Assembly: GCF_011745365.1 (NCBI RefSeq)
Contig: NW_024468911.1
Coordinates: forward strand, 4,458,759 to 4,522,758
DNA from: Cryphonectria parasitica EP155
Lineage: Eukaryota > Ascomycota > Sordariomycetes > Diaporthales > Cryphonectriaceae
Direction: 5' to 3'
DNA: 64,000 nucleotides
In this document: positions 8,024 through 59,200 of the stretch, in pieces
How positions within the stretch are numbered: the stretch's first letter is position 1
Layout of the letters: every line of letters begins with the position of its first letter
Program-made: the position numbers and the translations under genes
Notes under the pieces: generated by a model
Told to the model about the DNA's origin: nothing
Database searches by the model: none
Seen by the model: the letters and a program-made list of their open reading frames with translations, nothing else

Positions 8024-10114
8024 ATCCAGGCGGGCTGAACAATTTTCTAAGTTCCGCATATTTTGGTTTCAGGGGGTCTTGTCTTATCCACGACGCAAGC
8101 AAGTCGGCACTCCGGTACGAAACATGCGAATTGCGCCAGTTGGAAAGCTGGTGGTCCTGGAGTGTATCATCAGGGGCTGTCACAGAGCACGAGATGAAAG
8201 GCCAGTGGTTCCAGACAAATCGCCCGGCCTCCGAAAAGGCAACTGCTTTCACGGACCGCGGACTGGCTCTGTTGCTCCTCCAACACAACGTCTAACACAA
8301 CCAGCATGATGCCGTGCATCAATTTGGACGCCATAGCTGGTCTCATCCTCAGCCCTCACAATCTCAAATCCGAACGACCAAATCTTTACGTCATCAAGGC
8401 AAATGCAACGTCAGTGTACAAACGCAGACTCTCCTAGTTGATGAGTGGGATATCGACACGTAACAGCTCGAGAACCATGTCAATGAAAAGGACTCAAGCT
8501 CTCATGCGCAGTCGAGAACTGTGCCCTCTGTGAGGCAGTTCGTCCACTGTGAAGAGCGATGCAGAATTCATGTCTTCAAAATGCTGCCCTCGACAGCTCA
8601 ATATGTAGTCACCACGGATTACATCAGTGGAGAGTACCTGGACATATGTCAAATCACCAGTTATACTCAGCACAGATGCAGGTTCTGAGGTCCTGTATTT
8701 CTGAAAGTCGTATGACGTTCAAATAAGCTCAAATAGGCTCGGCAGGGTGGTCCACTTCGGGACGGGGTGGAGTGTTGGGGGGGAGGGGTATAGCAACGGG
8801 CCCGGCACCGGGATCAAAATCTATGAACCGCCTGCGGGACTTATCTGCTGAAGCCAGTGGTTTGGTTCTTGTTTATGAATTCAGGTCGATCCACAGAGCT
8901 ATGTCGTTGCTGTGCAAAGGGTCGTCCGGGTCATTGCAACTGGGCGCAAGCTGAGGGGCCATCACGATGATGGCCTTATTTCGTGTGTAAAGGGGCCAAG
9001 CACCATTTTCAGCGTTTCCATCTTCAGAGGAGATGGGCAAGCTACTTCTTGAGTACAACTATCTTGGGCCGATGCACGATATTACTGCTGCGCCGCTTGT
9101 TCAGCTGAGTGTGCCTGAATACCACAACAATAAGCCATGAACATTGATTTGTACCCTCCTGCAAATACTGGTATCAAGTCTGAAAAGGGTTGGTGTTTGA
9201 AGATGATCAAGGCTCGCAAGAACTAAAAATAAAACAAAATCATCACTGTAATTGAATCACATGCAAAGAACCCAAATCAGACTGAGACTCTCTGGGTGGG
9301 GTTGGATGGGCGGAGGGGTTCAATAAGGCTGAAGGGATGCCCCCTGCGGTCCGCGACCAGGTATTTCCAACCTGCAGCCTCCAGCTTGACTCAAAACCCC
9401 CAGTTCAGCTTCACATGCCAGCGTTACGCAGACATCAACTAATCTTATCCATGTCATCCTTATTCGCTTATGGCCACACAAGACTTTCTGCTCTACATTT
9501 TCTTTAGTTATTCACTCTGTGAGTTTAGTATTATTTTTCCGGCGCAGAGGAATTAGTTTGGGGTAGCTCCTGTGCAATCGTTCGTGGGTTATAACAAATT
9601 TATCTAAATATTGCAAAAGGAAAAGCCTTTTGATTCGAGCTTACTCAAGCCTAGTATTTCTGCCTTTCTGCCTTTGAGGTTATAGGCCATTTCCTCAATT
9701 AATTTTCACAATTTGTTAAGAAATGTTTTTGGTAGTGTCTCGGGCGAAAGAACTTGGTGGCAAGTGGTTTGGGGGAAATTTAAACCTGAAAAGGCTAGGG
9801 AGACTGTACGCTTATGTATGCTCGTCACAAAAACGCCGCCTCTGATGCAGCCAATTGGAGACAGAGTTATCAGTTCTCATATTGGGAAGAAGGTGGGTAG
9901 TACGGGCAGCATGGAGCTGACACGACGACAGCAGCCCGACATTTCACCTGCAGTGGCCCCCATGAGAGCCTGCAGCTCAGCCCCGTTCCGGGATTGTACG
10001 AATACTATTGTTCTATTCTCTCTCTGTTCTTTCCTTTTTTTTTTCTTTCCTTGTTTCTTTTCATTCTATGCATTTCGTTGGGAAACCTATCGGTCCCGGG
10101 ATAATCCTGAAATC
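8024..10114. other. 2.1 kb intergenic region
   Basis: No supported gene. Open frames here are short and lack recognisable motifs. The last 150 bases before the HET-ankyrin start are strongly pyrimidine-rich (TTCTCTCTCTG, T-rich tract around 10011-10070), typical of a fungal core promoter or 5' leader. Confidence 0.55.
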
Positions 10115-13100
10115 ATGTCTTCCGATGTAGCAGACCTTCTGAAGATAATCGAAAAGGCCCAGGCACAGGGTCTTTGCCCAAACCGAATCTGGCGGGCCGG
10201 TTCGAGGTTCAGCGGTTGGCGTGCGAGGCTCTTGAAGCCTCTGCAAAGCTTTTGCGACAGTCTTCCAGAGAACGTCCTCTCGCATGAAGACCACTCGGCG
10301 TGCACCCTAGACTTCTGCGAGTTTTCAAGTCGAAACTTCACGGCTGTCAGTCAGTACCACGAGCGATACTCCTACCAAGCAGGGGACCAAACGATAGTTG
10401 CACAGCAACATGGCAGTTCCAAGGTCTGCTTTCCGATCGAGGGCCTTTTCAACGAAGCCTTGTTGGTGAAAGCGGTCGAGTCCGGGAAACTCACCGCTTG
10501 GAACCTCGATGGGACAGCCACTCTAGAGCATCCTTTACCATTCATGGCCATCTCCCACGTCTGGTCAGACGGCACCGGTGCCGGAGCATGGTCCTCGAGA
10601 CAGGTCAATTTCTGTTTGTATAAGTACTTCCGAGACATCGCCGAGAGGTTCTCGTGCTGGGGGATCTGGTGGGACACCCTATGCATCCCTCAGGATCGAG
10701 TAGCCCGTGCAAAGTCGTTGAGTTTCATGGATTTGAACTACGCGTACGCGCGAATCACCCTCGTGCATGACCGCTTCCTTCGCAACTTAATCTTCGAGGG
10801 ACCGGACGCAGCCTGCTTTGCCATTGTCATGTCGGCTTGGTTCACACGAGGCTGGACGGCTCTTGAACTGGCCCGATCTCGCAAAGTGAAAGTAGTCTTC
10901 AAGGACTCAATCAAGGATCTCGACTACGACATTCTAGACAGGGTAGAGAAACACAATATTGCGGCTGGCACTTTACGGAATCTCAGAAATGCGCACGTCT
11001 CAGGAGTAGACGATCTTCTCAATACACTAGGGTCCAGATACACCTCACGGCCCAAAGACCGAGCGACCATCGCCGGCCACCTGGCTGGCATCCAGACCTC
11101 CGTCTCGCAGAACAAAGATACCTGGCAGCGGGACATTTATCAAGACATCCTTAGAAAGGTTGGGAAGGTGTCTCACGAGCATCTTTTCCACAAGTCTGCT
11201 ACTATGTCCGGTGGCTTCAGCTGGTGTCCCGCGAATATTTTTCAGCTTCCCCAGACGGCCATGCGACCCGAGTTAGACGTGAATCAGAAGGGGGAGATCG
11301 TGGGTATCTGGGAGCCTGTCGCGCTGGACGACGTGATTCGCGAACAACTTCGTGAGAAGTGTGTCTGGGGATATCTTCATGAATTGCTCGAGACAAGGGT
11401 CAAAAATGCGATCCAGGAAGAAAACAACAAGCATTTATTGTTGATCGCACCCCTGAGAATTACGAAAGACATGTCTGGAAACAGGGATGTGAGGAACGGC
11501 ATTGTCGTTCGGGTGATGAAGAAAGTCCACAAGGGAGCTAACGTCTGCAAGTGCCAGTTCTTGGGCTCTCTGAACTTCCGCCCTGCGGTTTTGATTCGAA
11601 GAAAGCATGAGACGCAGGTGTTGATCGGTGACACGGAGGGCTGGGAGCAGCTGTACGAGGGCGAGGATTCTTGGGAAATGGTTGTGCGTAGTGGGGAATA
11701 CGGAGCTAAAGAGGTGTGGGACATTGAAAATACCCATGCTGAAAAAGAAGGAAGCCCAACAACTCAAGACCGTACTTTAATAGGGAACTCGACAGATGGA
11801 CCTGAATCAATCTCGCAGTCACAGTCTGTTGAGAATGGCCTTTCCTTCGACATTACACCCAACTGGACAAGGCTCCACTCTGCAGCTTGGCTAGGGAACA
11901 TTCCAGATCTCATCGACGGAGAAGATTTCTGGGGTGCAGCATCGGACAGGTTTGGACAGCAAGCATTACACCTAGCAGCGGAACGAGGGGACACAGTACT
12001 TGTGGAGACGATACTACGCAACGTCAGAAAGGGCACCAGAAGCCTTCAATCCGTTGACAGATGGGGGCGCACTCCACTACATCGGGCGGCATGGGGCGGC
12101 TCCGATGATACCGTGCGCACTCTGCTGAGGTACGGGAGTCGCGCGGACGTCCGAGACAGGCTCGGATTTACACCACTGCACTTGGCAGCGGATATGGGAT
12201 TCGAAAACGTGGTCAAATGTCTGTGTGAGCATGTCGACGTGCGAAAGACAAATTTGGTCAGAGCCAAGGAAGGGCGCGGCCTTACGGCCCTGCACCTCGC
12301 AGCACTCAGCAAACATTACGAGGTGGCTAGCATTCTCATCAAGCATGGTGTTCCTATCAACCTTTTGCAAGGAACCTTCGCCTGGTCAGCCTTGCACTGC
12401 GCTGCGGAAAGTGGCAACGCTGCTACGGTGCGGCTTCTTCTCAATCAGGGTGCTGATCTTTGGAGTGAGGACATTGTCGGCTGGACACCCCTACATCTTG
12501 CGGCCATGGGCGGACACAGTGCAGTGGTCCGCCTGCTTCTGCAGAATGGAGCAGGCTCAAAGGAAACCAGAGACCATCAAGGCTGGTCGCCCATGAATTT
12601 CGCTGTGATCAATGGGCACAGCACAGTTGTCGAAGATCTTGTCAAGTCTGGCGTGTCGCTAGGCGAGGACTCATGGGCGCCTTTGAGGTGCCTGGAGAAC
12701 CTCAAGACAACGATTGGTGCCTCTAGTGAAAGGGAAGATCAAAATTCTCAAGTACCATCAGGTCTGGAAGCCGTGAATAGGTGGCAGGGGGTCGTCACGT
12801 CGTTGAAATCAGGCACTGTCAAGGTTAACAGAGGAATTTCGGGCGACAAGAAGCTCAGTTGGAGCCGCATACATCTGGCAGCTATAGATGGACAGTCCAG
12901 GCTGTCCCTTCTTCTCCTCGATATAAAAGGTGCGGAAACCGATCAGTGGGTCACCGAGGTCGAGGACGACGAATTGCTTCACTACGCCGCCAAGGATGGG
13001 CTTTACGGAACCATGAGCTTGTTTCTACAGCTTGGTGCCAATCCCGATACCAAGGACACTGGCCCGCATGCGCATACGCCGCTTTGGGCTGCATCTCTGC

Positions 13101-14053
13101 AGCACGAAATGCTCATGGTTCGACAACTGCTTGCGAACGGAGCTGACCCAAACGCCAATAGCAAAGACAATCGGACAATACTAACTTGGGCGGCTCTGAA
13201 CGGGAGGGAAAAAATAGTGAAGCTCCTTCTTGAGGCGGGAAGAGTGAACCCCGATGCGGTCGACCAGCATTCGTACTTGTCTCCGATCACATATGCCGCG
13301 TGGGAAGGTCATGAGCCCATTGTACGCCTTCTGCTCGAAACAAACAAAGTTGATATCACCGCCAGGAACAAATCCTTAGGCCGGACACCGCTCTGGTGTG
13401 CGATCAACGGAGGCAACGAGTCCGTGGTCAAGCTCCTTCTTGATGCAGGCAAAGACCTCGACATCGGCTTGAATCAATCAGTAAACTACGGGCATGGCGA
13501 GGAGACGCCTCTTCTGATGGCTGCCAAGAACGGACATGATGGGATAGTCAAGCTCCTTTTGCAGCGTCGAGTCCACCTTCAAGACCCAAGAAATCCAGCG
13601 CGAACGCCGCTATCGCACGCTGCCGAGAGAGGACATGAGAGGGTTGTGAAGCTTCTCCTCGAGTCCAGTCAGGGAACTATGCAGTACAGCACATCCGGGG
13701 GCTGGTCCGAAGCTGGGGTCAATCGCCCTGATCTGGACCTGGAGTGGACCCCACTATTCTACGCGACGCAGGGTGGGCATGAGGGTATTGTTCAACTCCT
13801 CCTCAACGAGGACATCAATGTCGACCGTTTGGACAAACGCGGACGTACTCCGTTGTTCTACGCCGCTATGAACGGATTTGAGGCAATCATTAGGCCTCTC
13901 CTAGACGCAGGCAACGACGTTGTTGATGCGCCAGACTACGCTGGGAAGACGCCGCGTTGGTATGCTGCTCAGAGTGGACATGACAGTATTGTTGAGCTGC
14001 TCGATTCTAGAAGCGGGAAGGGGCGCTGGCGCAAAATTTTCCGACAAAAGTAA
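10115..14053 (+). CDS. HET-domain protein with C-terminal ankyrin repeats
   Basis: Single-exon gene, 1312 residues from the ATG at 10115. The frame is open back to 9713, but the upstream part is only the pyrimidine-rich leader. A HET domain spans about residues 140-260: AISHVWSDG (about 145), WWDTLCIPQD (about 185), TLVHD and RGWTALELA (about 246), the hallmarks of heterokaryon-incompatibility proteins that trigger programmed cell death after nonself recognition. A linker of about 330 residues follows. From about residue 586 to 1295 I count 19 ankyrin-like units (for example GWTPLHLAAMGGH, GRTPLFYAAMNGF), interrupted by a degenerate stretch at about 850-905. The layout is effector domain plus repeat sensor without an NACHT or NB-ARC module between them. 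It ends in a basic tail (GRWRKIFRQK). Partner and trigger are unknown. Confidence 0.92.
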   Translation: MSSDVADLLKIIEKAQAQGLCPNRIWRAGSRFSGWRARLLKPLQSFCDSLPENVLSHEDHSACTLDFCEFSSRNFTAVSQYHERYSYQAGDQTIVAQQHGSSKVCFPIEGLFNEALLVKAVESGKLTAWNLDGTATLEHPLPFMAISHVWSDGTGAGAWSSRQVNFCLYKYFRDIAERFSCWGIWWDTLCIPQDRVARAKSLSFMDLNYAYARITLVHDRFLRNLIFEGPDAACFAIVMSAWFTRGWTALELARSRKVKVVFKDSIKDLDYDILDRVEKHNIAAGTLRNLRNAHVSGVDDLLNTLGSRYTSRPKDRATIAGHLAGIQTSVSQNKDTWQRDIYQDILRKVGKVSHEHLFHKSATMSGGFSWCPANIFQLPQTAMRPELDVNQKGEIVGIWEPVALDDVIREQLREKCVWGYLHELLETRVKNAIQEENNKHLLLIAPLRITKDMSGNRDVRNGIVVRVMKKVHKGANVCKCQFLGSLNFRPAVLIRRKHETQVLIGDTEGWEQLYEGEDSWEMVVRSGEYGAKEVWDIENTHAEKEGSPTTQDRTLIGNSTDGPESISQSQSVENGLSFDITPNWTRLHSAAWLGNIPDLIDGEDFWGAASDRFGQQALHLAAERGDTVLVETILRNVRKGTRSLQSVDRWGRTPLHRAAWGGSDDTVRTLLRYGSRADVRDRLGFTPLHLAADMGFENVVKCLCEHVDVRKTNLVRAKEGRGLTALHLAALSKHYEVASILIKHGVPINLLQGTFAWSALHCAAESGNAATVRLLLNQGADLWSEDIVGWTPLHLAAMGGHSAVVRLLLQNGAGSKETRDHQGWSPMNFAVINGHSTVVEDLVKSGVSLGEDSWAPLRCLENLKTTIGASSEREDQNSQVPSGLEAVNRWQGVVTSLKSGTVKVNRGISGDKKLSWSRIHLAAIDGQSRLSLLLLDIKGAETDQWVTEVEDDELLHYAAKDGLYGTMSLFLQLGANPDTKDTGPHAHTPLWAASLQHEMLMVRQLLANGADPNANSKDNRTILTWAALNGREKIVKLLLEAGRVNPDAVDQHSYLSPITYAAWEGHEPIVRLLLETNKVDITARNKSLGRTPLWCAINGGNESVVKLLLDAGKDLDIGLNQSVNYGHGEETPLLMAAKNGHDGIVKLLLQRRVHLQDPRNPARTPLSHAAERGHERVVKLLLESSQGTMQYSTSGGWSEAGVNRPDLDLEWTPLFYATQGGHEGIVQLLLNEDINVDRLDKRGRTPLFYAAMNGFEAIIRPLLDAGNDVVDAPDYAGKTPRWYAAQSGHDSIVELLDSRSGKGRWRKIFRQK

Positions 14054-18189: not shown

Positions 18190-19229
18190 ATGAGCGGGCA
18201 CGATCCTGGAAACCCAGAAGTCGACCTCTACAACGACACGATCGAAGACAATCTCGCACCCCCAGGCTGGCCTCTCTACCTTCCAACCAGACAATCGCTG
18301 GATTACCTTGAACAAGCACTTACCGAGGATGGAAACGGGCTCGATGGGCTGAACTTGGCCTTCGACAGGTCATCGACGGTAGTGATCAACCAAGAAGGGC
18401 ACTACGTTTGGTCCTGGCCGGAGAACAGCATCCAAGCCGCCGTTGTTCAAGGGCGACAACCGCATCTTGTCATGCTCCCCTCGGACAACGGCGGAGCCAA
18501 TAACGCATTGGGATCGCAGCAATATACTGTCGCGTTGGCATATGGTCCACCCAATGCTCTTCCCTACCGCTCCGAGGAAGAGCTTGAGCAAGCCTTCGCC
18601 AGAGCATACGCACCGAGAGACAGCCCCAGTGTCAGCCTGCCCAGTGGTATCTCGCCTTTCATGGGACAATACCCCGCTGGCAGTATGAACGTTCTGGCTC
18701 GGCCGGGCCCTGGCTGTTTACACCGTCTACCACCTGAGCAACCAGTATGTCAACCAACCCTCAGCACGTGGTGCATGTGTTACTGATGACTTCCCAGACG
18801 ATTGACCCGCAACTCCTGACGCTCCCTTCCCCGATCGGAATTGCTGAACAAGGCATGCACCAGCACGTCCAATTTCCCAACAGTCATATCGGTCCACCAG
18901 CTGGACGAGGCAGGCGCCCAAATGTCGAGGCTCACGTCAACCATTTGCAACTGCCACCTGGAGGAGGCATGCGCCACCAGGACGCCAAGGTCCGCAATAA
19001 CCAACCCCGATCACCAAGCCGACGCGACGGACGCGCCATTCGAGGACCCACCTGTGCCCGACGTGAACGTCCACCTGAGGGCCGAATGATGGCGACATTG
19101 AGGTCAAGAGCTGTCTACGAGGAGTGGGAGAGACTCAACAATACCCAGGACCGATTGGTGGTGACGATCAGGTCGCGAGCTGCCTGCGAGGCATGGGAGC
19201 GGCTCAACAACCACGGCCAAGGATCTTAG
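18190..19229 (+). CDS. Hypothetical protein with tandem 23-residue repeat
   Basis: Two exons, 18190-18744 and 18798-19229, with a textbook 53 nt intron (GTATGT donor, TACTGATG branch region, TTCCCAG acceptor, phase 0); 328 residues. I do not recognise the family. The N-terminal two thirds are soluble-looking, Pro- and Tyr-rich, with no signal peptide or membrane segment. The C-terminal third is basic and Arg-rich and ends in two tandem copies of a 23-residue unit, RSRAVYEEWERLNN and RSRAACEAWERLNN, with 12 of 16 aligned positions identical. The start at 18190 is in a good context (CACCATGAGC). It could be a lineage-specific gene; a nucleic-acid-binding role for the basic part is only a guess. 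Confidence 0.7.
19095..19211 (+). repeat. Tandem coding repeat (69 nt period)
   Basis: Two adjacent copies within the hypothetical gene, the first from 19095 and the second from 19164, encode the RSRAxxExWERLNN unit. The DNA has diverged at several positions, so the duplication is not recent or has been under selection. Confidence 0.8.
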
Positions 19230-19562: not shown

Positions 19563-20965
19563 TCAGCCTTGTACGGCTGGCTTGCCTTGCCTGTCCTGAC
19601 CCTGCGTGAGAAAATCACCCACGGTTTTGAAAACTTTTTCTTTGAGCCCACCACTCTCTAGATGACACATGTGGCTGCCTCCAGCAAACGTGATCCAGCG
19701 CACGCGAGGTATGAGTTCGAAGAAGGGCACTTGAGCGACGTCGTGCGAGGAATCAAACTCGCCGTTGTAGACGAGAGTCGGGGCAGTAACTTGAGGAAGA
19801 CCGGGGATGCTTGTCCAGTCCTTCATCGAGCCATCTCCGATCAGAACTGAACGGCCGTTCCTAGAGAGATGATCACCACACCGGTCAATACGTGTGGATG
19901 CACAGAAAATTCTTGTGGGCAGGGAGGGGTGGTTTGCGAAGATGGCATCATGATGACTTGTGGATAAAAGCAGAGCTGCTGGACTACAGAGCATGAAGAG
20001 AGGACAAGGATCTTGGTTGCAGCACATCATACAAATGCAAGAGCAGAGGAAATGCAAGGGGAAGAGAGCGATATGCCATGACCCATAGCAGAGAATCGCT
20101 TGGTCTCGTGCGTACTTGGAACCACGCGCTATCTGGCACATTTTTCCAGTGGTAAATTTCCAGTGGTAAATCGAGATAGAGGCCATGAGGATGTATAGGA
20201 AATGCACAGTATGCAGTACCAAAAAAAAAAAAAAAAAAGGAACAAAATAAATGCATGCAAAACAAATAGTGAATGGTCACCAACTCACATAGTCTGGTTC
20301 ACAGCTTTGGCTTCGCCGATGTTCTTGAAACTCGGCAATAGCGACGGTGGGAACGGATCATCTCGGCAGAGATACAACTTGTAAAAAGCCATCATAGCCC
20401 CTTGATACGCCGGGCTCTCGAAGTCTTCCTTCTTGAGACAGTCTTCAAGTACCTCCCGCTTGTCTGGCGGCATCTCCTGGATCCTCAGCTGATAGCCCTG
20501 GCTGGAAAGCTCCTTGCTGGCCAGCGCATTGGCGAGCACGAGCTTCTGCAAGCCTCGTGGCCGGCCAGAGGCGAAAGTAACGCCAAACATCCCGCCCCAG
20601 CTTTGGCCCAGAAGATGGAAGCCAGGGCCATCGCGCAGATTGAGATGATCAATGAGATTGTTCAGCTCGGCCACGAACGTAGACTCCTGCCACAGGCTGG
20701 TGTCGCCGAGGGTATCCGGCAGATGTGTTGATGAGCCACACCCGATCTGATCATAGAAGACGACTGGCAAGCCGTACTGCGGCCAAAGGTCCGCCCAAGA
20801 CAGGAGATAGTCATGGCCAGCACCGGGGCCACCATGTGCAACAACCAGGGGCGGGGCGCCACTTGAAAGGTCCCCAACAATCTTGTAATAGGTCGAACAG
20901 GAGATATCCTTCCTCCCGGGAACCTCAAAAGGAAGGGAGCCTTCCTTCGTCGGGAGTTGCGCCAT
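19563..20965 (-). CDS. S33 alpha/beta hydrolase, proline iminopeptidase-like
   Basis: Exons 20965-20289 and 19860-19563 encode 324 residues. The oxyanion motif HGGPGAGHDY, the nucleophile elbow GQSWGG (Ser about 120), an Asp in NGEFDSS (about 260) and a His in GGSHMCH (about 286) give the full catalytic triad of peptidase family S33. These enzymes release N-terminal proline or hydrolyse small peptides and amides; no signal peptide is visible, so it is probably cytosolic. The intron is unusually long (428 nt) but splices cleanly: donor GTGAGT in phase 2, acceptor TCTCTAG, and the codon formed across the junction keeps the family context (QTM then GSMKDWTSIPGL). It is divergent from the UstYa-like gene, with 846 bp between starts, so a peptide-trimming role in the proposed RiPP pathway is possible but unproven. 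Confidence 0.85.
20144..20171. repeat. Tandem 14-bp duplication inside intron
   Basis: The unit TTCCAGTGGTAAAT occurs twice head to tail and exactly. It lies in the long intron of the S33 hydrolase gene, near an A18 run at about 20221-20238. Confidence 0.9.
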
Positions 20966-21811: not shown

Positions 21812-22930
21812 ATGGCGAACACTGTCTACACCGCGTTGCCACAACACGAAGCCAACGAGGAAAAGGAGAACCCAATCTGGCCATCAACTCGCCGTCCGCT
21901 CTCGCAGCGATGGAGTCGGACTACGGCCTTGTTGAGTGCTCTCCTGCTTAGTTCATTGATAGCAAACTTCGTCTTGTTATATCGACAATTTGTGACGCCG
22001 TGGGATTTGATCAACGAGTTGCCCACTCGATACGGTAATGCCCATCCCTGACCCTACATACCTGGGCTTCTTGGCGGGTCAACACTAACCAACGGATTAT
22101 CAACGTAGCTGGTCTCGTTCGCAACGTTCCCACCAAAATTACACATCACATCGCGTTCGACAGCACGAACCGCACTGAACAGGACGCTGCTTGGGACGAC
22201 AAAGACCTTGAACCATGGACTCATTTCGTTGCCCTTGACGAAGACTACACGATCGATCTGGATTTGCCACATGCACAGAGGTGGCCATGGGACTTGAACA
22301 AGGGTGTATACATCTTAACAGCTGCACACGAGCTCCACTGCGTCGTAAGTAATGCTTTCCATCACGGGACCAGCGCCAACAACGAAGCTTGATCAGCACC
22401 GCTAATTGATCCTCTTTTTGCAGCGCGTGCTCCGTGTTGCCGTTAATGAAAACCACGACGGGGTACCCGAGGAGGAGCAGACATGGGCGTACGCACACTT
22501 GATCCACTGCCTGAACGTCTTGCGTGATACTGTCATGTGCAACGCCGATGATACCCCGTAAGTAATGGCTCCCCCCTTCTGAGAAATTCCAGACTGCCAC
22601 AAAGAGTTGCCTTGGGGGAGTTGGCGTCCATCTACTCTTTACAATCTTGGGCATTCTAAATCATCGTTATATCGGCTGACAATGGTGCTGTCTAGGTTGT
22701 ATGTTGGTCGCTTGCACGAGAATACACACTCCAGCGACCCCAGGGCTGGCATCGGCACAACTAAGATGTGTCGCAACTGGAACACGCTGCTGGAATGGTC
22801 GCGGGCGCGTAGCGCATGCTATTACCCAGAGGACTTTTTCAACCAAAGCTATCCAGAAGTTGAGCGCTACAAGTATTGCCCAGATGGCAGTCGGCCATGG
22901 GAAACTATAGAGGCACCACAGGCGCCTTGA
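21812..22930 (+). CDS. UstYa-like (DUF3328) oxidase, putative RiPP cyclase
   Basis: Four exons: 21812-22034, 22109-22344, 22424-22557, 22696-22930 (introns of 74, 79 and 138 nt; donors GTAATG, GTAAGT, GTAAGT), 275 residues. After a cytosolic N terminus there is one transmembrane segment at about residues 38-60 (LLSALLLSSLIANFVLLY), then a lumenal domain with the two diagnostic HxxHC motifs, HELHC and HLIHC, placed on either side of intron 2. A conserved Cys-rich tail (CRNWNTLLEWS) follows. Members such as UstYa/UstYb of ustiloxin synthesis are membrane-bound enzymes that build cross-links in ribosomally made peptides (dikaritins); other members oxidise small molecules. The gene converges on a small secreted Kex2-repeat gene 492 bp downstream, which makes a RiPP role attractive. 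The start is the first ATG of the frame. Confidence 0.9.
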
Positions 22931-23422
22931 TATATAGCAAGGTATCATCAGCTCATTCTTTTTTTGTATATTATCAACGTAGAGTAGCAATGGAAAATTC
23001 ATCAAATATATATATTTCATAATATTCTCGGACAGTTTTCCGTCGGAATGGTTCTTCTCAATGCAACTTGGGTGTGTCAACGCATGGAAACTTATTTGAG
23101 CAAGAAGCATATTCTGATGACGACCATTCAAGAGATGTCACGTCTCATTAAATTCACAGCGTTGCTGTGAATCGAACACAATGGATCAAAGCTCCGATTT
23201 CAAGGACAATCATAGAATAAACAAAATCATACTGCAGACATGATGTACGATCAATCGCAAGGGCTTTGAAGAAGATGTCATCCCATACATAGTCTTTATT
23301 CTTTGTGAATCCCACGTAAATTGTACTGCTCGCATTGCCCTGTGACTCGTGTGATCCAATTCATTAATAAGACGCATGGCGACACCATCCCTCAATAAGA
23401 TCATGTCTTCTTTGCCATAGTC
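22931..23422. other. Convergent intergenic region, no gene seen
   Basis: AT-rich 3' flank shared by the UstYa-like gene and the candidate precursor gene. No further small open frame with Kex2 sites was found here. Confidence 0.55.
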
Positions 23423-23829
23423 CTACTCAGAGGTACGTTTGTCCTTGAACTCCAAAGCCGGAACCACACCGGGAGCGTCAGTCTCGTCATTGACTGCCGA
23501 ACCATCGCCTCTCTTGAAGTTCAAGGCCCTGACGCCCGCGGCCGTGTCAGTCTCCATGTCCATGTCTCCCTCTTCGCAATCCGCCTCTGCCTCACGTTTA
23601 TTCTTGACTTCCAGGGCCGGCAGCACGGCAGCACCATCAATATTGGCACCTCTTGTAGCAAGAGATGTGCGAACTGTTTTTCATGTCAGCATCCGACTTC
23701 AAGACCAAGTAAAGAAGCCGAGAGAGGTGTCTGTATAGACTTACGCCAGAGAGGTGCGCGAAGAGGAAATGCGGCGCTCAAGGCCACCGCCGAGACGAGG
23801 ACCGCGAGAGGGGAAGTGAAGACACGCAT
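23423..23829 (-). CDS. Candidate secreted Kex2-processed repeat precursor (RiPP-like)
   Basis: Two exons, 23829-23745 and 23673-23423, joined by a 71 nt intron (GTAAGT donor, GCTGAC branch, AACAG acceptor, phase 1); 111 residues. Residues 1-20 form a clear signal peptide (MRVFTSPLAV, then LVSAVALSAA). The mature part holds three imperfect repeats, each ending at a Lys-Arg: PALEVKNKR (residues 47-55), RALNFKR (77-83) and PALEFKDKR (100-108). Acidic spacers between them share an ETD-x-A-x-GV pattern. KR is the Kex2 cleavage signal, and the first KR is followed by EAEA, as in yeast alpha-factor, where Ste13 trims such dipeptides. This architecture (signal peptide, repeats, KR) is that of fungal Kex2-processed repeat proteins, including dikaritin precursors, and it lies beside a UstYa-like gene. 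The core peptide and any product are unknown; no Tyr is present in the repeats. It could instead be a non-modified secreted peptide. Confidence 0.72.
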
Positions 23830-27194: not shown

Positions 27195-28625
27195 ATGTCG
27201 AGCGAATCCAAGGATGGAATATTGGCAGTCAGTGGCAGCCTGCTGGGTTTGTCGACGCTGGTCGTCGGGCTCAGACTGTGCGCTCGCAAGCAGCAGAACG
27301 CCAGGTTGATGACCGACGATGCACTGGCCGTTCTGAGTCTGGTAAGCAAGCATCTGACTCGAGGGAGCACTGTGTAACAAGTCAACGAGGCTTGCTGATA
27401 GAAGTGGTTATTCAAAGGTTGCTTTTGTTGGGACGGCGGCGTGTACTTTTCTCAGTAAGTTTCTTTTTCCATACTACATCATCCTATCACATTCACAATT
27501 TACTCGTGACAATATACTGATCAGCTCGTAGTGGTCAAACACAAGACTGTCGGGTATCCCAGTACAGACTTCACTGTAGCGGAAGAATTAGCAGTAGCTG
27601 AAATCGCAGCCAAGGTACGAAGTCTGTCTTGTTTCTGCTCGCGTGTGTCAACGATTGATTAATTCGACCCAGCTCAATGTCGCCTGGGATGTGCTCGGCC
27701 TCACAAGTCTGGCCTGCATCAAGCTCAGTGCCCTCTTCTTCTACAGGCGCGTCTTCTGCATACACGGGTGGCTTGAGGCTCAGTGGTTCAGCATAGCCAC
27801 CTTTGTCACCATTGTGCTCGTGGTCCTATGGGATGTTGTCTTCAGCTTCCTGCCCGGTTTCCAGTGTGGTACACACTTTTCCGCTCTTTGGGATGGCACC
27901 TATGAGACATACTGCACCATTTCCTTCCCGTACCTGTACGGCCTCGCCGTGTCCGACTTCCTCCTCGACGTGTGGATCCTGTTCCTTCCGATCCCTCGCA
28001 TCCTGCAGCTGCACGCGACGGCATCGCAGAAGTCTGGTTTTATCGGTGTCTTTGCCCTTGCGTTCGTTGGCCTTGGTGCCTCGATCACTCGAATGGTGAT
28101 CTACATCCAGGTTGAGAATGGAGGACCTTCTTATTTCCTAACTCATGACGAAGACCGTGAGTAATATCTCCATTGCCTATCATTGGATTAACATAGGAGT
28201 CAACTGCCCAAGAACAACCTACTGACTGGCTCGGCCGCGCAGTGATCGACACGAAATCCATCTACTTTGCAATGCTCGAGATCGGCATATCTCTTATCGC
28301 CGTCAACCTTCCCTCCCTCTGGATGCTCTTCACCTCTGTCACGCCCGAGAAGGTCATCCGCAGCATCCGCAGCGTCATTTCCCTCGGCTCCCTGCGCAGT
28401 CGTGGCAGCAGCCGTGGCGATGTCGACAATGTGGCAGGAAAGGCAAGCACAGCCGGCAGCACACGTCCCAGCGAGTCTTCTGGGAGACTACGCAACGATG
28501 TGGAAGCTCAAAAGGCGGAGGTGTATGCTACACCAGATGAGATTAGGCCACATCAAGAGGAACTAGGAAACGGTGTGCACATTCACAGCACGGTGTCGAT
28601 CCACCATCAGCCATCTGAAAAGTAA
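27195..28625 (+). CDS. Pth11-like rhodopsin-domain integral membrane protein
   Basis: Five exons: 27195-27341, 27418-27454, 27532-27614, 27673-28156, 28243-28625 (introns 76, 77, 58 and 86 nt), all in consistent phase; 377 residues. It belongs to the fungal rhodopsin-domain family (PTH11-like, seven transmembrane). Segments visible in order: SGSLLGLSTLVVGLRLCAR, VAFVGTAACTFL, LGLTSLACIKLSALFFYRR, FVTIVLVVLWDVVFSFLPG, a conserved FPYLYGLAVSDFLLDVWILF, GFIGVFALAFVGLGASITR and LEIGISLIAVNLPSLWML. The family motif D-x-W-x-L-F-L-P-x-P is present (DVWILFLPIPRI). The C-terminal tail is cytosolic, Ser/Arg-rich and charged. Relatives act as surface or nutrient sensors in pathogens (Pth11) or are uncharacterised. 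It lacks the N-terminal CFEM domain of Pth11 itself. Ligand unknown. Confidence 0.9.
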
Positions 28626-55263: not shown

Positions 55264-56267
55264 AAAAAATTGATGAGAACTTGAGGATAAGTTTGGTGAA
55301 CCGCTTGTTGTGAAGGCGCTGTAGGCTGACTGTAGTGGAATGGCAAAGTTACGGTGGGGCGAGCCTTGCATCTGTGGGGTTGCATCGAGTGGATGACAAG
55401 GGCTGCCGTGCTTCCAGGACCCTGAGTGTGGCCCCAGATTAACTTTCGTACCGAGAACATGATGCGGAAAGGACAGCCCCTGATTGGCGTGGAAGCCCCG
55501 TGTAAATAAAATCTGCCCCAAACTTAGCTCCCAACAACGGCTGAGCAGAAGCAGGGATCATTCTCCAGGGCAATCGCGGGACCTTCTCAACAATGCTATG
55601 CGTTCATCTTTTGGGGGGGGGTCTCACTTTCAGAAATCTTTGCTAGCAAGCACCAAAGAGCAACAGAAAGGACGGACAGAAGGAGAACTGCTAAGCCCGC
55701 ACCTGTCTCATCTTCATGCTTGGTGAGTAAAGCCCCAGTTGTTGAAGTTGAATGCCCTCGCTTCCTCCTCGACACTGCCCTTCGATTGTCTTCCCACTCC
55801 TCCATTCCCCTGCTTCCAAATCACCAGCAGTGCAGACAACAAGGAAGAAAATCCCTAGGCCTGCTCATTTGTTTCCCTCTTGTCCTTGATTCATCCTCCT
55901 CCCAATCTGAACATCACCACCCCTCTTTCCTTGATGCAGCCAGCCTTGGGGTTTAACGTGGTCGACCACCAAGTAGAAGCTTGAACATCAATCTAATACC
56001 CACGGTAGCAGTTTCATTCTTCCTGCCTCCGTTTCTCGACTAGATCCTCCGAATTCCACCTCCTCCCTCGCTCAGGAACTCGAGAGTCAGTAGAGGCTTG
56101 AAGGTCAACCTAGATTTCCTCCATACAAAACGACGAACCATATTCCATTTTTCTTCGACGATACCCACTGTTGGTTCTTGAGCATACTTCACCGCCCTAA
56201 GAACCCGCGAATAGACCCCGTTTTTACCCTCCGACAACCGCATAGACAAATTCCTTCACCTGCCATA
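52713..56267. promoter_or_regulatory. Divergent FAS beta/alpha intergenic region
   Basis: 3.55 kb separate the two FAS start codons. No gene is supported; open frames of up to 117 codons (near 54803-55156) have no motif. The alpha-side end (about 55740-56267) is CT-rich and looks like a promoter plus long 5' leader. A single CCTCGG, the core bound by FarA/FarB-type fatty-acid regulators in aspergilli, is at 54944-54949. An A30 run at about 55229-55258 sits near the middle. Such head-to-head placement of FAS genes is common in Pezizomycotina and allows co-regulation. Confidence 0.55.
55229..55258. repeat. Poly-A tract (A30)
   Basis: Thirty consecutive A, followed by CCTG and a further A7. Longest homopolymer in the window; could be a nucleosome-excluding element in the FAS intergenic region or a relic retrotransposon tail. 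Confidence 0.9.
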
Positions 56268-59200
56268 ATGAGACCCGAAGTTGAGCAGGAGCTCGCCCAT
56301 ACGCTCCTCGTAGAGCTCCTCGCATACCAGTTCGCCTCTCCCGTGCGGTGGATTGAGACTCAAGATGTCTTCCTTGCCGAAAAAACCGCTGAGCGGATCG
56401 TCGAGGTCGGTCCCGCTGATACTCTCGGCGTGATGGCCAAGAGGACGCTCGCCTCCAAGTACGAAGCCTTCGATGCTGCGAAATCAGTACAACGACAGAT
56501 TCTTTGCTACAACAAGGACGCCAAGGAGATTTACTACGATGTTGATCCCATCGAGGAGGAGCCAGAACCAACACCAGCCGCTCCCGCCGCTGCCTCAAGC
56601 AGTGCAGCCCCTGCTGCTGCTCCCGCCGCTGCTGCACCAGCACCGAGCGCTGGTCCGGCTGCGCAAGTTCCAGATGCCCCAGTCACTGCTATGGACATTG
56701 TGAGGTCTCTGATTGCCCAGAAGCTGAAGAAGTCCTATGCCGAGATTCCTCTCAGCAAGGCCATCAAGGATCTTGTCGGTGGTAAGTACAGCCCAGATGG
56801 TCGCTTGGCATGCGATCGAGGAGCTCACACGCTTTTTTCACAGGCAAATCTACTCTCCAAAACGAAATATTGGGCGACCTCCAAAAAGAATTCGGAACAA
56901 CACCCGAGAAGCCAGAAGACACCCCCCTGGATGAGCTCGGTGCGTCCATGCAGGCCACCTTCGACGGTAACCTTGGCAAGGTTTCTCAAGGCCTAATCGC
57001 CCGTCTCATCTCCTCCAAAATGCCTGGTGGCTTCAACGTCACATCTGCACGCAAGTATCTCGAGACCCGCTGGGGCCTAGCTTCGGGTCGCCAGGATGGT
57101 GTGCTGCTGCTCGGAATCACAATGGAGCCAGCCACTCGATTGGGCTCCGAGGCCGACGCCAAGGCCTTCCTCGACGATGTTGCACAGAAGTACGCCTCCA
57201 ACGCCGGTATCAGCCTGACAACGGCTACGGCTGCTGATACTGGTTCTGGCGGCGGTGGCATGATGATGGATCCGGCCGCCATCGATGCGCTCACCAAAGA
57301 CCAGAGGGCACTCTTCAAGCAGCAGCTCGAGCTAATTGCGCGGTACCTAAAACTCGATCTACGTGCTGGTGACAAGGCGTTCATCGATGAGCAGAAGTCG
57401 ACCAAGGTTCTGCAGGCTCAATTGGACCTGTGGAGCACAGAGCATGGCGATTTCTACGCGGCTGGCATCGAGCCCTCCTTCAACCCCCTGAAGGCCAGAA
57501 CATACGACTCCTCATGGAACTGGGCCCGCCAAGATGCGTTGACCATGTACTACGATATAATTTTCGGGAAATTGCAGGTTGTCGACCGTGAAATTGTCAG
57601 CCAGTGTATCCGCCTCATGAACAAGTCCAATCCGACACTCCTCGAGTTCATGCAATACCACATCGACCACTGCCCCACGGAGCGTGGGGAGACGTACAAG
57701 CTGGCGAAGGACCTGGCAACACAGCTGCTCGAAAACTGCAGGGAAGCTCTAGCTGTTGATCCTGTCTACAAGGATGTCGAGTTTCCCACAGGACCTCGCA
57801 CAACAATTGATCTTAAGGGCAACCTGAGTTATGAGGAAGTGTCACGTCCGGACTGCCGAAAGCTGGAGACTTATGTCCAGCAAATGGCTCTCGGCGGCAA
57901 GATCTCTGAGTACCCTGCCAGGTCCAAGGTGCAGAGCGAACTTGGTCGCCTGTACAAGCTGATCAAGGCGCAGCACAAGATGGCCAAAGGTTCTCAGGTG
58001 GAGCTCAAGAACATCTACAGCGACGTCATTCGCTCCCTGAACATGAACGAGAACCAGATTTTGAAGGAGGATTCGAAGCCTGGCCTTCTGGCCAAGAAGG
58101 TTGCCAAGCCCAAGGGCAAGACCGATTGCATCCCGTTCCTTCACCTGAAGCAAAAGTCCATGAACGGCTGGGACTACAGCAAGAAGCTCAGCAACGTCTA
58201 CCTTGACTGCATGGCGGACGCAGCCAAGAACGGTATCAGTTACGCTGGCAAGTACGCCCTCATGACTGGCGCTGGTGCTGGATCCATCGGTGCCGAAGTC
58301 CTGCAAGGTTTGATTCAGGGCGGTGCCCACGTTATTGTCACCACCAGTCGTTTCTCTCGCCAGGTGACCGAGTACTACCAGGCGATGTACGCCCGCTATG
58401 GTTCTCGTGGCTCACAGCTCGTGGTTGTGCCCTTCAACCAGGGCAGCAAGCAAGATGTTGAGGCTCTGGTTGACTACATCTACGACTCCAAGAATGGCCT
58501 GGGTTGGGACCTTGACTATATTGTCCCATTTGCTGCCATTCCCGAGAATGGTCGTCAGATTGATGGCATTGACTCCAAGTCCGAGCTGGCTCATCGTATC
58601 ATGCTCACCAACCTTCTTCGCCTGCTTGGTTGTGTCAAGACACAAAAGTCAGCCCGTGGCTTCGAGACTCGCCCCGCGCAAGTCATGCTTCCTCTCTCAC
58701 CCAACCATGGAACCTTTGGTAGCGATGGTCTCTACTCAGAGTCTAAACTTGCTCTTGAGACCCTCTTCAACCGATGGCACGCTGAAGATTGGGGCAGCTA
58801 CCTCACCATCTGCGGCGCTATCATTGGCTGGACGCGTGGTACCGGTCTCATGTCGGCGAACAACATCGTGGCCGAGGGAGTCGAGAAGTTTGGCGTGCGG
58901 ACATTCTCGCAACAAGAGATGGCTTTCAACCTGCTGGGTCTGATGTCCCCTCAGGTCGTCGACCTGTGCCAGATGGAGCCTGTCATGGCGGATCTGAACG
59001 GTGGGCTGCAGTTCATCCCTGATCTGAACAAGGTCATGACCAAGCTTCGCAAGGATATCACAGAGACTAGTGAAATCCGCAGGGCTGTCAGCAAGGAGAA
59101 TGCTTTGGAATTTGCCGTCATCAACGGCTCAGAGGCCGAGGCGCTTCACAAGTCGAGGAAGATCGAGCCCCGTGCCAACATCAAGTTTGAATTCCCTCCT

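What the first reader, a model, noticed from the sequence alone, without database searches (positions are those of the whole stretch)
21812..23829. Candidate new RiPP (dikaritin-like) locus: UstYa-type gene facing a Kex2-repeat precursor
Seen: a four-exon UstYa/DUF3328 gene with both HxxHC motifs converges, 492 bp apart, on a two-exon gene for a 111-residue secreted protein with three imperfect repeats ending in KR (PALEVKNKR, RALNFKR, PALEFKDKR). Known: ustiloxin, phomopsin, asperipin, victorin and epichloecyclin loci pair a signal-peptide/Kex2-repeat precursor with UstYa-type enzymes. Inference: the repeats carry the core peptide, perhaps the Val/Pro-Ala-Leu-Glu/Asn-Phe-Lys segment. The core does not match any of those I know, so the product would be new. 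Weak points: only three divergent repeats, and no Tyr.
Basis: partly seen in the sequence, partly recalled or inferred. Interest (0 to 1): 0.88.

Follow-up and report, generated by a model that had tools for sequence, protein, structure and literature searches.

The report
Likely fungal modified-peptide mini-locus
A fungal genome carries a small gene for a secreted protein with repeated cutting sites, beside a gene for an enzyme of a family known to modify such peptides, so the pair probably makes a small modified peptide of a known general kind.

Summary
A four-exon UstYa gene (21812-22930, +, 275 aa, two HxxHC motifs) converges, 492 bp apart, on a two-exon gene (23829-23423, -, 111 aa) for a secreted protein with three KR-ending repeats. 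The repeats exceed chance (0 of 200,000 shuffles for the KR-pair statistic). A scan for signal peptide plus dibasic repeats over 295 kb (window and flanks of 17 other UstYa loci) gave five genes: three precursors near other UstYa genes, this one (lowest-scoring) and one stray hit. Best reading: a degenerate-repeat Kex2-processed precursor in a new member of the UstYa-associated fungal RiPP kind, not a dikaritin in the strict sense: no Tyr, only two repeats closely alike, no transporter, regulator or second UstYa recognised nearby. A proline-iminopeptidase-like gene lies head-to-head with UstYa and could trim the peptides (inference). The UstYa's nearest paralogue lies in a three-UstYa cluster where no repeat precursor was found. 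Protein-database and literature calls all failed, so conservation, placement against characterised enzymes and novelty of the core are untested. Real Kex2 precursor about 0.85; UstYa acts on it about 0.6.

The parts
21812..22930 (+). UstYa-family oxidase gene, four exons (21812-22034, 22109-22344, 22424-22557, 22696-22930), 275 aa, N-terminal hydrophobic stretch, HELHC and HLIHC
   Evidence: splice enumeration; coordinates re-checked; PF11807 E 5.9e-21; motifs and hydropathy
23423..23829 (-). Candidate precursor gene, exons 23829-23745 and 23673-23423 (stop included), 111 aa, signal-peptide-like N-terminus
   Evidence: hydropathy 2.76; no Pfam hit; no second match in own genome at E up to 10
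23594..23620 (-). Repeat 1 PALEVKNKR (residues 47-55)
23510..23530 (-). Repeat 2 RALNFKR (residues 77-83), degenerate
23435..23461 (-). Repeat 3 PALEFKDKR (residues 100-108)
19563..20965 (-). Proline-iminopeptidase-like alpha/beta hydrolase, head-to-head with UstYa (846 bp between start codons); model exon 1 20965-20289, exon 2 19860-19563, 324 aa. Membership of the locus is inferred
   Evidence: Abhydrolase_1; TIGR01250 134.1 and 24.0 bits on the two exon frames, each below its 167.65 cut-off; PDB proline iminopeptidase E 1.2e-41; exon model is my choice among the nine printed (GTGAGT donor)

Best explanation
The small gene encodes a secreted precursor that the Kex2-type protease cuts after the three KR pairs, giving short peptides with acidic leaders whose C-terminal part is VLPALEVKN, GVRALNF or VVPALEFKD. 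The membrane-anchored UstYa enzyme next to it oxidises the conserved ALxF/V segment before or after cutting, and exopeptidases, perhaps the neighbouring proline-iminopeptidase-like enzyme, trim the ends. It is thus a minimal UstYa-associated fungal RiPP locus. Shown: gene structures, domain, motifs, repeats above chance, similar loci in the same genome. Inferred: Kex2 cutting, modification by this UstYa, trimming, and that there is a stable product.
For: Clean splice sites and signal-peptide-like start. Repeats beyond chance. The scan for signal peptide + at least two KR/RR sites with shared flanking 3-mers gave 5 genes in 295 kb: L015, L017 and L024, each 1 to 5 kb from a UstYa gene, this gene, and one stray at window 45380 that starts inside the reverse strand of the amidohydrolase ORF; the same scan gave 0 on the reversed sequence and 11 hits in 40 dinucleotide shuffles, about 0.28 per 295 kb. 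Of 18 UstYa loci that I grouped from the list, 4 have such a gene. Repeats 1 and 3 differ at 4 of 6.0 synonymous but 2 of 21 nonsynonymous sites (Fisher p 0.011). From residue 22 on, the two Phe residues lie at the same place in repeats 2 and 3. The K-(D/N)-KR ending resembles K-(E/D)-KR in the 12-copy precursor L017.
Against: This gene has the lowest score (2 shared 3-mers) of the five, below the stray hit (4). Two of three repeat pairs show no constraint (p 0.37 and 0.56), and the pair that does was picked for its likeness. Repeat 2 is poor. No Tyr. Among the window ORFs scanned no transporter, tyrosinase, methyltransferase or regulator was recognised near, and no second UstYa is listed in the window. 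The UstYa's closest paralogue (support 0.978, 57 of 149 columns identical) lies in a cluster of three UstYa genes with Methyltransf_2 and MFS ORFs where no repeat precursor was found. 14 of 18 UstYa loci have no such gene by this scan. The hexamer score of the small exon (17) is near that of an antisense ORF inside UstYa (14).
Confidence: 0.6

Rival explanations
1. The small gene is an ordinary Kex2-processed secreted peptide precursor (signal or defence peptide) whose products are not modified; the UstYa gene beside it belongs to something else.
For: Precursor features do not need UstYa; the genes converge and so share no promoter; UstYa groups with a paralogue whose cluster has no repeat precursor found; 14 of 18 UstYa loci lack such a gene by the scan.
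Against: Four of the five genes of this type in the 295 kb lie near UstYa genes, though most of the searched sequence is UstYa flank, so this is not a genome-wide rate; shuffled sequence would give about 0.5% per 5-kb neighbourhood and about 8% over 18 loci (my arithmetic).
Confidence: 0.27
2. The small gene is a secreted acidic protein that acts whole, and the KR repeats are remnants of an old duplication or are not cut.
For: Only three degenerate repeats with long unlike linkers; a single well-conserved pair.
Against: Three KR sites are rare by chance in this composition (0.29%) and each ends a related segment; very small and without a Pfam hit at E up to 1.
Confidence: 0.1
3. The small gene is a mis-predicted ORF.
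For: No transcript or homologue data; modest hexamer score.
Against: Signal peptide, canonical intron with branch site and in-frame repeats coincide; the reversed 295 kb gives no such gene.
Confidence: 0.03

Closest known systems
Dikaritins with several UstYa-type enzymes (ustiloxin, phomopsin) - recalled, no paper could be opened
   Same: Signal-peptide precursor with repeats ending in KR; neighbouring UstYa-family enzyme with two HxxHC motifs
   Different: Here three degenerate repeats, no Tyr, one UstYa, no transporter, tyrosinase or methyltransferase recognised nearby
Asperipin-2a locus (recalled)
   Same: A single UstYa-type enzyme beside one repeat precursor
   Different: That core is rich in aromatic residues (recalled); here only Phe, and only in two of three repeats
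Victorin locus (recalled)
   Same: A core without Tyr (recalled)
   Different: Several UstYa-type genes and other enzymes there (recalled); different core
Precursor L017 5678 (+) in the same genome, 12 repeats of the type EEEAPAYVWASVNKEKR
   Same: Signal peptide, K-acid-KR repeat endings, UstYa genes nearby
   Different: Many near-identical repeats with Tyr and Trp; three UstYa genes and a GNAT ORF
Precursor L024 4613 (-) in the same genome, two repeats RSYLIV(A/S)ADEEP
   Same: Few repeats per gene, intron just after the signal peptide, UstYa genes nearby
   Different: Core follows the basic site and has Tyr; five UstYa genes plus a further UstYa fragment nearby

Membership tests
UstYa-associated fungal RiPP loci (broad) | Secreted precursor with signal peptide | tested here: met
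   hydrophobic N-terminus, hydropathy 2.76, cleavage-like site; crude rule, not SignalP
UstYa-associated fungal RiPP loci (broad) | Repeats each ending in a dibasic Kex2 site | tested here: met
   three KR-ending segments, beyond shuffles; repeat 2 weak
UstYa-associated fungal RiPP loci (broad) | UstYa-family gene nearby with two HxxHC motifs | tested here: met
   PF11807 E 5.9e-21; HELHC 148, HLIHC 178; 492 bp away
UstYa-associated fungal RiPP loci (broad) | Near-identical core in the repeats | tested here: inconclusive
   7 of 9 residues between repeats 1 and 3; repeat 2 shares only ALxFK with repeat 3
UstYa-associated fungal RiPP loci (broad) | Product is an oxidised or cyclised peptide made from the precursor | not testable with these tools
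   needs LC-MS with gene removals
UstYa-associated fungal RiPP loci (broad) | Pairing kept in related genomes | not testable with these tools
   no relatives held for this genome; protein search off
Dikaritins in the strict, Tyr-cyclised sense (definition recalled) | Tyr in the core | tested here: not met
   no Tyr from residue 22 on; W28, F81, F104 only
Dikaritins in the strict, Tyr-cyclised sense (definition recalled) | Two UstYa-type enzymes and further tailoring or transport genes | tested here: not met
   one UstYa listed in the window; recognised neighbours are a proline-iminopeptidase-like hydrolase, a fungal rhodopsin-domain ORF and a GNAT ORF; the ORF scan was partial, see full report
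UstYa enzymes known to act on peptides | Phylogenetic placement with characterised peptide-acting UstYa proteins | not testable with these tools
   no characterised sequences available; no UstYa in the PDB by sequence at E up to 1; own-genome tree only

The most novel reading that the evidence does not exclude
A minimal three-gene RiPP pathway (precursor, single UstYa, proline-iminopeptidase-like trimming enzyme) in which UstYa works on a Tyr- and Trp-free AL(E/N)(F/V)K core, implying a reaction on aliphatic, Phe or Lys side chains rather than a Tyr ether, with the N-terminal Pro-Ala end worked on by the dedicated peptidase.
Probability: 0.18. Interest if true: 0.62.

Novelty: new member of a known kind. 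Interest (0 to 1): 0.42.

Why it matters
If true it adds a peptide family with an unusual, Tyr-free core and few repeats, suggesting that genome miners who ask for many identical repeats miss loci. The genome is also a good yardstick: at least 18 UstYa loci (my grouping), with precursor-like genes ranging from 12 near-identical repeats to none found.

Tried and rejected
Second member of the precursor family elsewhere in the genome: none by protein search. A degenerate pattern for PALE(F/V)K(N/D)KR with up to 2 mismatches gave 4 matches: the two repeats here, L012 (in-frame stop within its 26 bases) and L013; L013 was read and judged non-coding by eye, not tested further. Relatives of the precursor in prokaryote genomes: 96 pattern matches, none confirmed; UstYa in phage records: none. 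Solved structures: none for UstYa or the precursor. Rfam and tRNA scans of the window: none. The tyrosinase matches lie outside the window. Proline-iminopeptidase paralogues are not in the UstYa stretches that I fetched. A precursor like this one in the cluster of the closest UstYa paralogue: none found; a 43-aa secreted ORF without KR sites was found instead.

Full report
The window is a stretch of a 43.8-Mb, 17-contig genome held as G000 (contig 3, 4458759-4522758); its introns and genes such as the two fatty-acid-synthase subunits are those of a filamentous fungus (inference). No tool named the species.

Observation. Enumerating splice sites printed two UstYa models that differ in one donor; the one with the GTAAGT donor has exons 21812-22034, 22109-22344, 22424-22557, 22696-22930 and 275 aa. 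It matches Pfam UstYa at E 5.9e-21 over residues 32-236, with a hydrophobic stretch from residue 38 and HxxHC motifs at 148 and 178. On the other strand, 23829-23745 plus 23673-23423 gives a 111-residue protein with a signal-peptide-like start, a 71-bp intron with GTAAGT, CTGAC and CAG, and three KR-ending segments. A second acceptor giving 103 aa was the best-scoring model for this start (the score of the 71-bp version was not printed); both keep the repeats. The coding ends are 492 bp apart.

Is it more than chance? In shuffles of the 90-residue mature part, three or more KR appear in 0.29%, the observed likeness of two KR-preceding segments in 0 of 200,000, and the longest self-match in 1 of 1,500. 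The middle repeat does not contribute: its ungapped scores with the others are negative. Repeats 1 and 3 differ at 4 of 6.0 synonymous and 2 of 21 nonsynonymous sites (p 0.011), but this pair was chosen for likeness; pairs with repeat 2 show nothing (p 0.37, 0.56). The hexamer score of the exon (10.2, 17) is weak evidence, because an antisense ORF inside UstYa scored 14.

Yardstick in the same genome. One search lists 36 UstYa exon matches, which I grouped into 18 loci including this one; one search adds a weak match at C2:3998456 that I did not fetch or count. I fetched 10 kb (19 kb for four clusters) around 16 of the other 17, and 7 kb round the last plus 24 kb of further flanks: 295 kb with the window, small overlaps included. 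A KR-only scan at score 14 or more found four ORFs: two textbook precursors (L015, L017), a frame overlapping a repeat gene in L028, and this gene. A second scan asked for a signal peptide, an optional canonical intron, 45-320 aa, at least two KR/RR sites, and shared flanking 3-mers. It gave 18 candidates, five of them with two or more shared 3-mers: L015 (12), L017 (12), L024 (4), window 45380 (4) and this gene (2). I take window 45380 as spurious, since it starts inside the reverse strand of the amidohydrolase ORF and is K/R/E-rich, although the low-complexity flag did not mark it. The same scan gave none on reversed sequence and 11 in 40 shuffles. L024 shows that a precursor of this kind can have only two repeats. 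So 4 of 18 UstYa loci carry such a gene; 14 do not, within the stretches searched and under this rule.

The UstYa gene among its paralogues. A tree of merged exon pieces from 28 UstYa genes (one further fragment, L024 2683-2808, was left out) puts it with C3:2292 (support 0.978; 57 of 149 columns identical). That paralogue lies in a cluster of three UstYa genes with a Methyltransf_2 ORF and MFS ORFs. No repeat precursor was found there; a 43-aa secreted ORF without dibasic sites (L029 8622) lies between the UstYa genes. This neither supports nor refutes a peptide substrate for the window enzyme.

Neighbours. Head-to-head with UstYa, 846 bp between start codons, is an alpha/beta hydrolase of the proline-iminopeptidase family; its two exon frames score 134.1 and 24.0 bits against a cut-off of 167.65. 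Its paralogues lie elsewhere, outside the UstYa stretches fetched. Since two repeats begin Pro-Ala, a trimming role is attractive but only inferred. To the right the next recognised gene is a fungal rhodopsin-domain ORF at 27598; no transporter, regulator or further tailoring gene was recognised near. Coverage: of the 22 ORFs selected, 18 were scanned with Pfam, one more (18820-19086), and 23426-23680 as part of the precursor; 2758-2955 and 56094-56993 were not scanned, nor were three extra small ORFs selected (32132, 34121, 56259).

Reading. The best account is a small UstYa-associated RiPP locus: precursor, one UstYa and perhaps a trimming peptidase. What it works like and what it is are kept apart: it resembles dikaritin loci in layout, but the Tyr and multi-enzyme features recalled for strict dikaritins are not met, so it is filed only under the broad kind. 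The chief rival is an unmodified Kex2 peptide gene that lies beside UstYa by chance, with a look-elsewhere chance of about 8% from shuffles over 18 loci (my arithmetic), which understates real background because genes are not shuffled sequence.

Limits. No relative, transcript, characterised UstYa sequence or paper could be consulted: protein search off, literature calls failed. All statements on ustiloxin, phomopsin, asperipin and victorin are recalled. Whether the core is new is therefore untested.

The odds did not need to change.

Noticed in passing
L017 5678-6460 (+) (G000 C8): Precursor with 12 repeats of the type EEEAPAYVWASVNKEKR, 4.6 kb from the nearest of three UstYa genes, with a GNAT ORF: a textbook UstYa-RiPP locus.
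   Followed up: partly
L015 6818-7431 (+) (G000 C6): Precursor with six 25-residue repeats of the type DENWNAAAWSNFVKSYVDGAEEAKR (the last without KR) near a UstYa gene, FAD phenol-hydroxylase-like ORFs and an MFS ORF.
   Followed up: partly
L024 4613-4017 (-) (G000 C4): Two-repeat precursor (RSYLIVAADEEP, RSYLIVSADEEP) followed by a second repeat-bearing reading frame (own start not seen), in a cluster with five UstYa genes; a PKS-like ORF lies in L036 1443-5426 (-).
   Followed up: partly
L028 631-1839 (-) (G000 C1): Secreted-looking protein with 14 copies of REPHHQGKGKKNNGRD, no Pfam hit, about 2.8 kb from a UstYa gene; cut sites would be single Arg rather than KR. Too long for the scan.
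   Followed up: no
L029 8622-8836 (+) (G000 C3): 43-aa secreted peptide gene (MKITLILAYLMTALGVVARP then VEDSDEAVAYPASVDQSWIDSQT) without any dibasic site, between UstYa genes of a three-UstYa cluster; possibly a single-core precursor, its AYPASV resembling AYVWASV of L017.
   Followed up: partly
L022 7399-7971 (+) (G000 C7): ORF with eight copies of a DTTEGVVT-type repeat, no KR, near a three-UstYa cluster; the strand and frame that are real were not settled.
   Followed up: no
window 9686-14050: Large ankyrin-repeat protein with a weak HET (heterokaryon incompatibility) domain.
   Followed up: no
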